A DNA stretch of 64,000 bases, taken from Marisa cornuarietis (Eukaryota > Mollusca > Gastropoda > Architaenioglossa > Ampullariidae). Location: assembly GCA_004794655.1 (NCBI GenBank), contig SMMW01000033.1:1987501-2051500 (forward strand), read 5' to 3'. Numbering within the stretch: the first letter of the stretch is position 1; each line of letters begins with the position of its first letter. A model generated the notes under the pieces. The model saw only the letters and a program-made list of their open reading frames with translations. It searched no databases and was not told where the DNA came from. Position numbers and translations under genes: made by a program. Below, piece by piece: positions 15,007 through 53,498 of the stretch.

Positions 15007-16659
15007 ATGAAGTACGTGTTGATAGTCCTCCTTTTAGGTAAGGTATAGAAGGATATCTTTCAGAAAAACGATCTTAGTTTATGTATGATAGGTAGGTTAT
15101 GAAATATTAGTTAATATTTATGGTATATTTATATAGTATATTTTACATTAAATATTTACACCCATATTTTTAGTTTTTAGTATTTTAGTACGTGCCTAGG
15201 ATATCTCTGAAACTTGGTATCAGATTAAATCGGATTTAACGTGAATGCAGAGTTCAGCAGCAGCAACAAAGGACACAATGTTTCTAATTCCCACTTACAA
15301 AATATTATGAATTATTAGTTTCAGTATCCTCAGACTTTGTCTTTGAATATAACTACCAGAAGTGTGTCAAACGCTTCTGTAGTTTTTTTTAATTACGGTT
15401 GAACACTTTTCTTACTAACAGATAAAATATATTTGTCCTGTAATTAACACGTTTTATGAATATACTGCAGCTTTCTCCATTACCTTGACAAAAGGGAGTG
15501 GGAACTGCGAGAGCTGTAATTTAGACACGACAGGAGGAGAAGACGTGTCTCGGTGGTGTGTTGAGCCCTAGTTTGACTTTATATATATATATAGTTTTGA
15601 TTTGTGTTTTTTAAGACATTTAGAGCTACAGAAACTTATAAAAGTAGTTCGTCCTGTTGTAACTTTGAGTGGGACATCGCATACAGTTAAAATCGCATGC
15701 AGTTAAAATCTTTCATTTGATTTTTTGTACTAGAAGTCAAAACCTATGTATCTTAGAATTCATACTCAGTAAATGTTTTAAAAATGCTCATTAAACGGTG
15801 TATTACAGATGGTTGTCTTTACTGTAGGTTAAAAATGCCGGTCGAAATTTCGACCCTGGGCATTCACTAAAGGCATCTAGCTCAAGAGTTTTTAAGTGTT
15901 ATGTGTATGCAATTATTTTGACACAGAGACATTAATCAAATCTGTGAATTTTAAGTGGTAATCAAACTGCAAACCACATCTATGCAAAGCGCGCACACAC
16001 GCGCGCACGAACACGTAAGCAAACATTGTACAGCTCAGAGCGCTTTGCTTACCTGACATTTTTTTTAACTAAGAGAGCACAAATGGGGGTTGTTGCAGGT
16101 CTCTTCGATCTTATCTTCAATGCCTTCGGAACTGTGGCGAGAGTTTTGATACAGAATTGGAAAAATTGGAAAAACAGTTAAATGAAAAATGTGGTAGGTC
16201 ATTTTTGTTTCCCGCTGGTTTGATGCCATACTCAAAACTGAAACATTACAGTTTTATACTGGAAAATAAGTTTACCGGAGGTCAAAGTAAAATTGTTTTT
16301 ATATAACTCCTTGTCCAAAAATTGAACTTTATGGCGGGATTGCACAGGCGGAAAACTATAATAATGGAATTGCCCTTTTGGATGAATAAATTTGTATTGT
16401 ATTCTAAAAGACGATAAGAAATAGTCCGCATGTCTAATGCGCTCTCCTTATGTCATGTATAAGAAATATTTTAAAATATTAAAAAATTTTCTACTCTGCT
16501 TATTTTTGAAAACAACAAAGAACTGATCTTAAAATGTGGTGGTCAGCGCTAATTGTGTAATTGTCTGATTCACTTTCAGGTACAGCTGCTCTGTCTGCCA
16601 GCCTTCTAACTGTCCTTGGTGCCTTGCTGGTCACTGTCTATAGAAATATCGGAGTGTGA
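15007..16659 (+). CDS. Gene 1: small secreted, cysteine-rich, membrane-anchored protein (4 exons, family not recognised)
   Basis: The coding exons are 15007-15037, 15471-15555, 16099-16193 and 16580-16659, with GT/AG introns in phases 1, 2 and 1; the frame stays open to the TGA at 16657-16659. The predicted product is about 96 residues. Exon 1 is a short hydrophobic signal peptide (MKYVLIVLLL). Exon 2 has NCESCN. Exon 3 has QCLRNCGES followed by a Glu/Lys-rich helix-like stretch ending in Cys. Exon 4 is hydrophobic (LLTVLGALLVTVYRNIGV), which fits a GPI-attachment signal or a very short membrane anchor. Only five cysteines are present, because exon 2 is shorter than in genes 2-4 and lacks the third one. 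The exon 2 donor is ambiguous: GTGGTG at 15553 and GTGTGT at 15556 both keep frame. A TATA box lies 125 bp upstream. The exon model is read directly from sequence and homology to genes 2 and 3; cellular role is unknown. Confidence 0.75.
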
Positions 16660-16799
16660 TCTCTGCCTCTTCTTCTTTTCTGATTTTGTATCATTTAAGT
16701 TTTGAATTATAAGCAATGAACATTTTCATAAAAGATAACTGGGTTCATCATTTTAAAATGTTGTCGTAAATATCAGTGTCATGCTCTTTCTTTCTCTTT

Positions 16800-16901
16800 C
16801 ACACACACACACACACACACACACACACACACACACACACACACACACACACACACACACACACACACACACACACACACACACACACACACACACACAC
16901 A
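16800..16901. repeat. (AC)n microsatellite after gene 1
   Basis: About 50 AC units roughly 140 bp past the gene 1 stop codon, so it may lie in or just beyond the 3' UTR. Confidence 0.85.
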
Positions 16902-18254
16902 ATGTAATTCCACAGTAAATATAAAAATGTATTCGCTGAGTTAACCTGATAAATAATTTTAAAGGAATGGTTTTTAAACTTTTAAGTTGGACTAAAGGAG
17001 ATCAAATTTTCTTATAGTGTTGTCTATGCATAAAAATGAGATGAATAATTAGTTTTAAGCTGTTTTTGAGGCATGAAAACAGAATGATTTTAAAATGACT
17101 CCAAGAAATTAATGCATGCTGCATTTCTTCGCACACTTCAATAAGATGTTTCAAAAAGTTAATAACAGTGGATGCTGTCACGATTGACACTAGTGACACT
17201 CGATCTTACAGAATCCATTTGCACATCAATTATCATTTAAAAAAAAAAGCTCAAAGGACGTATCCGCTGGTTACGAATATCTCGAGTAGCATTCACAAAT
17301 GGAAACGTCTTTACAGAATTAAATTAAGTGACAAATAGAAGATCTACTAATGTTTAATTAAAGAAGCTCAGAAAAATAAAGAACATTTCATTAATGACTA
17401 TTTGGCCGAAAAAAATGTAATAGCAATGAAGAATGATACCAAAGATCTGTTTACCCAGAGACTTTATGAATCATAGAGCAGCTTTCTAATACATAAATAA
17501 TGCGCATCTTATAATCATATTTCTAATAGCATGAGAGTCCCCGTCACACTTTTATAGTTGAAGTTACTTTTTAAAGAAAATCCTGAGATCTAAGTAAAAC
17601 AATTATTTTACACTTTTTGGTCCATTTCAAATAAACGTGTGTTTACAAAATTTTTGTTCTCATTTTATTTTAACTGTTTAGTCCTTTCTCTTTATTACAG
17701 CGCTCTTCCAATCGCACACGCTTTTCATCTTCAGTCTCTGCCTCTTCTTTTCTAGTCTTTTTCTTTGCGTTGCGGTTTCCCGGATCGGTGTTTTCACTTA
17801 GAAGAAAATATTTAATATTGCACTTTAGTAAATTAGAGGTTCCAAGGTCGTCCTCTGTGGTGACTCTACAGTTAATTTAGCATCCGCCTATCTGTCTGAC
17901 TGACGCGCCGCATTCTACTTACACAGGCTGTCAAATTCTTGACGCATAAGGGAACATCACGCGAAAAGCACGGGGCGCACAAAAATGTTGAGAGTAACTG
18001 TCTGCACAGTACTTTCACACCCGTGTATTTACAAAGCTTATCAGCACTCGGACAGTGTGACAGAACGGGAATAGCAAACATACACAAACATGGTTTTGCA
18101 TGCCAGGGTTGTTTTACGTCTCTAAATGGTTGCGTATTTTTTATGGATTTTGCGGGTTTATTTTATAAATGCAATCAACCAAAAGGAGGGAACTATTGCA
18201 TGTTTGAATTTTGTTTTCAATTTTTGTCATTTTACTATTTGACTTTATTCCCTT

Positions 18255-52513: not shown

Positions 52514-52622
52514 GCCAATGAAAGCCAGCAGAGTTTACAGTAAGGCCTGTGACTGGCAGCTTGGTCTGATAGATGGTCATAGAGACAAATATAAAGTGAC
52601 GGCAATCGTTCTTTTTGTCAGT
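52514..52622 (+). promoter_or_regulatory. Gene 4 core promoter: CCAAT, TATA, TCAGT initiator
   Basis: CCAAT is at 52514-52518, TATAAA at 52590-52595, and TCAGT at 52618-52622, again with 30 bp between the TATA start and the initiator A. It is the paralogue of the gene 3 promoter, and the flanking 5' leader (GACTATTTGTCA, AGAGCTG) is also shared. Confidence 0.6.
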
Positions 52623-52705
52623 TTCTCTTGAAGAAAGCTTAGACATTTCATCACAGACATTTTGGTTATCGACTATTTGTCAGAGCTGCCGTTAGCTTTA
52701 TCATC

Positions 52706-53498
52706 ATGAAGTGCTTTCTGACCGTTCTGTTTCTTTCTGGTGAGTTGTAGAATTGTACTTAAGTTTTACGTTGATAAAAAAGTATGCTGTATTTTTGTTA
52801 TCATTCACAGATATCATGCATCGAAGCAATTTATTTTACATTTTGAATTAGTCAAATGCATTTGCTTACTTTCATTTCTTACTTAAATTTTATTACTCTG
52901 CTGATTACAGGTGTTTATGGCTGCGTGTGTTTTGTGTATCATATCAAGTCATTGTTAGCCATTTTCCTGTTTTTTGTTTGTTGGTCGGCACAGAGAATGT
53001 CACCTGTTTTGGTTTTGATGCTTCACGATATGAATCTTCAGTTAAATTAAATTCGAAAAAACTTAGATTTTATTTATAAATTGACACACCCGGCTTGAAC
53101 CTCCTGGTATTACCAAATAATTGCATGAATTGTATCCATGTGAAACTTAAAAAACGTTTAGCACGCATCAGCAACAGCATGTGACGTAAGTGAATGTGAA
53201 TTTTCAAAGGTTAGTTCACTCCAGGATTTCCTTATTGTGTGCATGCATGTATTGAGTGCTAAGTTTCCACTTTCCTCTCAAACTATACTCTTTTATAAAC
53301 CTCGGAAACGCTTTAGCTAAAATTCTTTGTCGATTGTTTCACTCCTATATCAAAAATTAAAAAAAAACATTTCTTTGAATAAACTGCAGCTTCCTTCTTG
53401 AACTTGACAAATGGGGACCAAGCCAGCTGCATAACGCAGTGTGCGACCGCCTTCACGTCAGCCCTAACAAGCTTAACGGACCAGTCCTCATTCTGCAA
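52706..53498 (+). CDS. Gene 4: family member, first two exons only
   Basis: Exon 1 is 52706-52739 (MKCFLTVLFLS) and exon 2 is 53390-53498, joined in phase 1 with canonical sites. Exon 2 reads SFLNLTNGDQ, then SCITQCATAF, and ends in SSFC; it has an NLT glycosylation site and C-x3-C-x17-C. It ends with a good donor (GTAAGA at 53499). I find no exon 3 or exon 4 in the remaining 10.5 kb, which is filled by LINE debris and pieces of duplicated upstream DNA. Either the 3' half was lost, or the gene splices to an exon beyond the window. The start is set by homology to gene 3 and by the promoter 116 bp upstream. Confidence 0.6.

What the first reader, a model, noticed from the sequence alone, without database searches (positions are those of the whole stretch)
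15007..53498. Tandem family of unrecognised secreted six-cysteine proteins with a GPI-like tail
At least five units share one plan: signal peptide exon, C-x3-C-x16/17-C exon, C-x3-C-x18/19-C exon, hydrophobic tail exon, with intron phases 1-2-1. The two middle exons look like repeats of one three-cysteine motif. The tail motif LxVLxALLxTxYR is conserved while the ectodomain varies strongly, as expected of fast-evolving surface or defence proteins. I cannot match it to Ly6, ShK, saposin or another family by eye. Surface or immune function is inference.
Basis: partly seen in the sequence, partly recalled or inferred. Interest (0 to 1): 0.88.

Follow-up and report, generated by a model that had tools for sequence, protein, structure and literature searches.

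The report
Decaying tandem cluster of secreted miniproteins
This stretch of an animal genome, probably a marine snail's, holds a real but partly broken cluster of small secreted cysteine-rich protein genes that match no family in the searches made here, so it looks like a fairly ordinary fast-changing orphan gene family whose job is unknown.

Summary
A multi-copy gene family is there, with exons in phases 1-2-1: a leader exon, a C-x3-C-x16/17-C exon, a C-x3-C-x18/19-C exon and a hydrophobic tail exon. A strict splice-aware scan finds 3 such exons here and 0 in 100 Markov controls. But five complete units is too many. Only A and B have all four exon positions, and both are damaged in exon 2. 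C keeps exon 1 and a cut exon 2, D exons 2-4, E exons 1-2. The only complete open frame joins C exon 1 to D exons 2-4 (114 aa). Pfam, PDB and a 5.8-billion-protein search give no relative. B and D kept frame and all six cysteines despite intron-like divergence, so they were under protein-level selection; the ectodomain is near dN/dS 1, the tail perhaps constrained. That the two middle exons are repeats is not supported. Host probably a caenogastropod. Best reading: a birth-and-death family of small secreted or membrane-tethered helical miniproteins. Function is inferred; no expression data or genome could be searched.

The parts
15007..15037 (+). Unit A exon 1 (leader MKYVLIVLLL), phase-1 donor gtaagg; TATAAA at 14882
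   Evidence: also found in the blind leader scan
15471..15571 (+). Unit A exon 2, diverged: acceptor ctgcag, C-x2-C-x13-C, no clean phase-2 donor, stop at 15569-15571 (damaged or non-functional)
16099..16193 (+). Unit A exon 3, C-x3-C-x18-C, phase 2 in, phase 1 out
16580..16659 (+). Unit A exon 4, hydrophobic tail LTVLGALLVTVYRNIGV and stop
22695..22725 (+). Unit B exon 1 (leader MKYMLVLIFS); TATAAA at 22624; promoter block CAACAAGCCTTTGATTGACAG shared with unit A
22969..23077 (+). Unit B exon 2, C-x3-C-x16-C; AT in place of the donor GT, in-frame TAA at 23079-23081 (damaged)
23745..23842 (+). Unit B exon 3, C-x3-C-x19-C
24271..24359 (+). Unit B exon 4, tail LTVLGALLITAYRAIIQ and stop
36155..36188 (+). 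Unit C exon 1 (leader MKCFWTILLLC), phase-1 donor gtgagt; TATAAA at 36058 and 36012
36875..36927 (+). Unit C exon 2 remnant, acceptor lost (gcg), homology to E ends at 36927
38807..38918 (+). Unit D exon 2, C-x3-C-x16-C, canonical acceptor and donor
41448..41545 (+). Unit D exon 3, C-x3-C-x19-C
41975..42075 (+). Unit D exon 4, tail LIVLCALLLTAYRTVIQ and stop; C exon 1 + D exons 2-4 give a 114-aa open frame
48909..49020 (+). B-type exon 2 fragment (84% to 22918-23029), no donor
52706..52739 (+). Unit E exon 1 (leader MKCFLTVLFLS), phase-1 donor gtgagt; TATAAA at 52590
53390..53498 (+). Unit E exon 2, C-x3-C-x17-C, canonical donor; no exon 3 or 4 found downstream
4500..4542 (-). Unit F exon 1 candidate (leader MDAKKSALLLVLVL), phase-1 donor gtgagt; no TATAAA within 220 nt
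1841..1958 (-). Unit F exon 2, C-x3-C-x17-C plus one extra Cys, phase 1 in, phase 2 out
1395..1504 (-). Unit F exon 3, C-x4-C-x22-C, phase 2 in, phase 1 out; no tail exon recognised in the 1.4 kb left in the window

Best explanation
A lineage-restricted, tandemly duplicated family of very small secreted proteins, evolving by birth and death in a retroelement-rich region of what is probably a caenogastropod genome. Shown: shared exon-intron plan, TATA-box leaders, two old segmental duplications (B to D, C to E), retained frame and six cysteines between B and D, decay of several copies, and a leftover arrangement in which C's leader exon stands in front of D's intact exons 2-4. Inferred: the leader sends the protein into the secretory pathway with cleavage near the invariant Gly just before the first Cys; the cysteines lock short CxxxC-bearing helices into a disulfide-stabilised miniprotein; the hydrophobic tail with conserved YR holds it at the membrane, either traded for a GPI anchor or kept as a short membrane segment; the ectodomain changes quickly because it meets a changing partner (reproductive or immune) or because constraint on it is loose.
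For: Exon plan and phases; strict scan 3 against 0 in 100 controls; segmental duplications B-D and C-E; neutral simulation from B-D intron rates: open and unshifted 0.00039, with six Cys 0 of 100000; B-D indels in coding exons all whole codons against 20 of 30 non-triplet indels in introns; tail dS 0.609, dN 0.226 against ectodomain exons dN 0.337 and 0.330; ectodomain and tail differ in nd:sd, p 0.043; exon-2 signature C-x3-C-x3-F-x-S-x-L-x8/9-C in 4 of 4 aligned copies including F; weak all-helix models of single exons, pLDDT 64 and 67; retroelement protein nearest among the named listed hits to Littorina saxatilis, 71%.
Against: No RNA evidence. A, B, C, E and the 48909 copy are each incomplete or damaged; the open gene depends on C's leader splicing to D across 2.6 kb. 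dN/dS is not significantly different from 1 in either part, and the ectodomain alone fits neutrality; the tail test alone is p 0.10. The 3' part of intron 1 is less diverged (JC 0.173) than the exons, so intron rates vary. No signal-peptide or GPI predictor was run. Only three tails exist.
Confidence: 0.6

Rival explanations
1. A dead cluster: all copies in this window are pseudogenes of a family whose working members lie elsewhere in the genome.
For: Donor loss and stop in B, degenerate exon 2 in A, broken exon 2 in C, no exon 3/4 for E, no own leader for D, ectodomain dN/dS near 1.
Against: C exon 1 + D exons 2-4 is fully open with GT-AG borders and correct phases; F is open over three exons; E's surviving exons are intact; frame and Cys retention is far from neutral, although that speaks for the past.
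Confidence: 0.27
2. Divergent members of a known helical disulfide fold (for example saposin-like) that sequence methods cannot see.
For: Single exons are modelled as helix at low confidence; a listed 2026 preprint reports that sequence-orphan aphid bicycle effectors have saposin-like folds (PMC13041983, start of abstract seen), so hidden known folds in orphan families do occur.
Against: Order and spacing of the cysteines (C-x3-C-x16/17-C, then C-x3-C-x18/19-C) do not match the saposin order as I recall it; no Pfam match in 5 members; no PDB profile match better than E 0.21.
Confidence: 0.2
3. Exons belong to a transposon or repeat, and the similarity between copies is that of a repeat family.
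For: The region is full of retroelement pieces, some of them between and inside the units.
Against: No exon overlaps the retroelement-like pieces found by self-comparison; copies carry introns, TATA boxes and splice borders; B shows the empty site of the 1.8-kb insertion in D's intron 2. No repeat library could be searched.
Confidence: 0.05

Closest known systems
Saposin-like proteins (and aphid bicycle proteins)
   Same: Small secreted helical proteins with six cysteines; bicycle genes are also fast-evolving, intron-rich orphan families
   Different: Cysteine order and spacing differ from saposin as recalled; no Pfam match; bicycle papers seen only as listing and start of abstract
Ly6/uPAR three-finger proteins
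   Same: Short ectodomain, leader and hydrophobic tail coded by separate exons
   Different: Six cysteines in two C-x3-C-x(16-19)-C blocks, helix predicted; no Pfam match
LOSP, paraspermal protein of Littorina
   Same: A species-variable secreted protein of a probably related snail, in a gene described as rich in transposable elements (passages of PMC8614816, and PMC6826153)
   Different: No sequence of it was compared here; nothing links the two beyond the kind of evolution

Membership tests
Saposin-like (SAPLIP) | match to a saposin profile | tested here: not met
   Pfam scan of 5 of 5 members, no family at E<=5
Saposin-like (SAPLIP) | cysteine order C-C ... C ... C ... C-C with three nested disulfides (recalled) | tested here: not met
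   Exons give C-x3-C-x16/17-C and C-x3-C-x18/19-C; the pattern compared with is recalled
Saposin-like (SAPLIP) | four- or five-helix closed bundle | tested here: inconclusive
   Only single exons of 34-36 aa were folded, helix at pLDDT 64-67; the spliced protein was not folded
Ly6/uPAR | match to a Ly6 profile | tested here: not met
   No Pfam match in 5 of 5 members
ShK-like | match to a ShK profile | tested here: not met
   No Pfam match in 5 of 5 members
GPI-anchored proteins | cleavable C-terminal signal with small omega residues and hydrophobic end | tested here: inconclusive
   By eye: small-residue stretch and 12-14 hydrophobic residues in A, B, D, but a conserved YR and 3-4 residues follow; no predictor was run
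Secreted proteins | N-terminal signal peptide | tested here: inconclusive
   Hydrophobic leaders found by a hydropathy and donor scan and an invariant Gly before the first Cys; no SignalP
Transposon-derived exons | exons part of a repeat consensus | not testable with these tools
   No repeat library and no genome could be searched

The most novel reading that the evidence does not exclude
A new gastropod family of membrane-tethered two-block (3+3 cysteine) helical miniproteins used as rapidly changing recognition molecules, with leader and ectodomain exons re-paired between neighbouring units (C leader with D body) as a way of making new variants.
Probability: 0.12. Interest if true: 0.65.

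Novelty: new member of a known kind. Interest (0 to 1): 0.35.

Why it matters
If expressed, it is an unnamed family of disulfide miniproteins with a recognisable gene plan; such plans find relatives that sequence searches miss, and fast-changing surface or reproductive proteins are candidates in species recognition and immunity. But lineage-restricted clusters of small secreted cysteine-rich genes are common in animal genomes (general knowledge), and several copies here are decaying, so the case is useful for annotation rather than very surprising.

Tried and rejected
Homology: phmmer of the C1-D2-4 protein (10 candidates shared words, none E<=10) and a five-member profile (2673 candidates, none E<=10). 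Both need shared exact 5-residue words, so absence of distant relatives is not shown. PDB by sequence and profile: best E 0.68 and 0.21, treated as chance. Rfam: 0 at gathering score, 12 weak matches at E<=1, 11 of them in the CA-repeat stretch 9194-9484. Literature: seven searches listed no paper that I could recognise as describing this family; the library holds open-licence papers only.

Exon 2/exon 3 as repeats: rejected for lack of support. Adaptive evolution: not shown. Five complete units: rejected. A further phase-correct three-Cys hit on the minus strand (23913) inside B's intron 3 was dropped because it has no family similarity. A weak exon-2-like piece at 18394 minus (E 0.026) was not counted as a member. 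My first leader scan asked for too long a leader and found nothing.

Limits: the own-genome search did not complete, so copy number, other members and expression are unknown. The host is inferred from one retroelement search in which, of the 120 hits listed, only P0006 and P0011 (both Littorina saxatilis) and P0050 (a bacterium name, probably mislabelled) carry an organism name.

Full report
What is there. A blind scan for short hydrophobic leaders with a phase-1 donor returned 13 rows (12 distinct ATGs) over both strands, including these four. Exon-2-type exons with correct borders are at 38807-38918 and 53390-53498, and a donor-less one at 22969; exon-3-type exons are at 16099-16193, 23745-23842 and 41448-41545; tail exons at 16580, 24271 and 41975.

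More than chance. A strict splice-aware scan finds 3 phase-correct three-cysteine exons in the window and 0 in 100 order-1 Markov controls. One of the three is at 1911 on the minus strand, outside the finding. With it go an exon 3 (1504-1395) and a leader candidate (4542-4500); the three join in phases 1-2-1 into an open frame. F differs in having an extra cysteine, C-x4-C-x22-C in exon 3, no TATAAA within 220 nt of the leader, and no recognised tail exon in the window.

How many units. Self-comparison shows two old duplications: 22857-26227 with 38696-43037 (66-71%) and 31077-36927 with 49997-53443 (75-80%). So the order is A, B, C, D, E, with B-C and D-E as the duplicated pairs. Only A and B hold all four exon positions. 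A's exon 2 has lost the pattern and the donor. B's exon 2 has AT in place of the donor GT that D has, and runs into a stop. C's exon 2 has lost its acceptor and 3' half. D lacks a leader. E lacks exons 3 and 4 in the remaining 10.5 kb. The complete open frame in the window is C exon 1 with D exons 2-4, 114 aa, all borders GT-AG. That splice is a prediction.

Selection. Between B and D, introns and flanks show Jukes-Cantor distances of 0.28-0.42, but 0.173 for the 110-bp end of intron 1. Coding exons are hardly less diverged, yet keep frame, and all six cysteines are kept. Simulation with intron rates (381 substitutions in 1341 aligned bases, 30 indel events, 20 not multiples of three) gives 0.00039 for open frames and 0 of 100000 for open frames with six cysteines. 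dN and dS are 0.337 and 0.177 (exon 2), 0.330 and 0.358 (exon 3), 0.226 and 0.609 (tail). The ectodomain is not different from neutral (p 0.70), the tail alone is not significant (p 0.10), and the two parts differ at p 0.043. B and D thus passed most of their divergence as coding sequences, with a loosely constrained or diversifying ectodomain.

What it encodes. Four exon-2 copies, including F, share C-x3-C-x3-F-x-S-x-L-x8/9-C. Folding of single exons gives helix at pLDDT 64 and 67, too weak for a fold search, so none was made. The two middle exons are not shown to be repeats: hhalign probability 1%, and entry/exit phases 1-2 against 2-1.

Relatives. No Pfam family for 5 of 5 members at E<=5, no PDB match of note, no protein among word-sharing candidates (10, 2673). 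The protein set does contain animal proteins: a retroelement ORF of the window gave 998 hits, and both animal-named ones among the 120 listed are Littorina saxatilis at 71%. Hence the host is probably a caenogastropod, by inference.

Mechanism and function. Most likely these are secreted or membrane-tethered disulfide miniproteins in a birth-and-death cluster. Secretion, tethering and partner recognition are inferred from leader, cysteines, tail and the pattern of divergence. Reproductive and immune roles are equally open; the LOSP passages are background on fast-changing snail proteins, not evidence of kinship.

Verdict. Real family, fewer complete genes than claimed, one more member than claimed, no known relative found, ordinary kind.

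Noticed in passing
4542-1395, minus strand: Family member F with leader, exon 2 and exon 3 in phases 1-2-1, on the strand opposite to the cluster and outside the reported coordinates.
   Followed up: yes
14830-14891 and about 22579-22633: Units A and B share a promoter block CAACAAGCCTTTGATTGACAG and TATAAAGGCA.
   Followed up: partly
39615-41438: About 1.8 kb inserted in D's intron 2 relative to B, made partly of pieces repeated at 54522-55186 on the other strand; B shows the uninterrupted site.
   Followed up: partly
36211-36323 and 39303-39415: A 113-bp sequence 99% identical at two places inside the cluster, far more alike than its surroundings.
   Followed up: no
37065-37478: ORF that by eye resembles a Tc1/mariner transposase, lying just after the broken exon 2 of unit C; recalled likeness, no Pfam support.
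   Followed up: partly
34351-35124: ORFs that by eye resemble a hAT-type transposase-derived protein; recalled likeness, no Pfam support.
   Followed up: partly
21075-22095, 44335-45346, 46629-47123: A roughly 1-kb repeat in three copies, 85-89% alike, two on one strand and one on the other.
   Followed up: no
18394-18341, minus strand: Short piece LLKPSAGYEVASCKN resembling the start of exon 2 (E 0.026), perhaps a relic.
   Followed up: no
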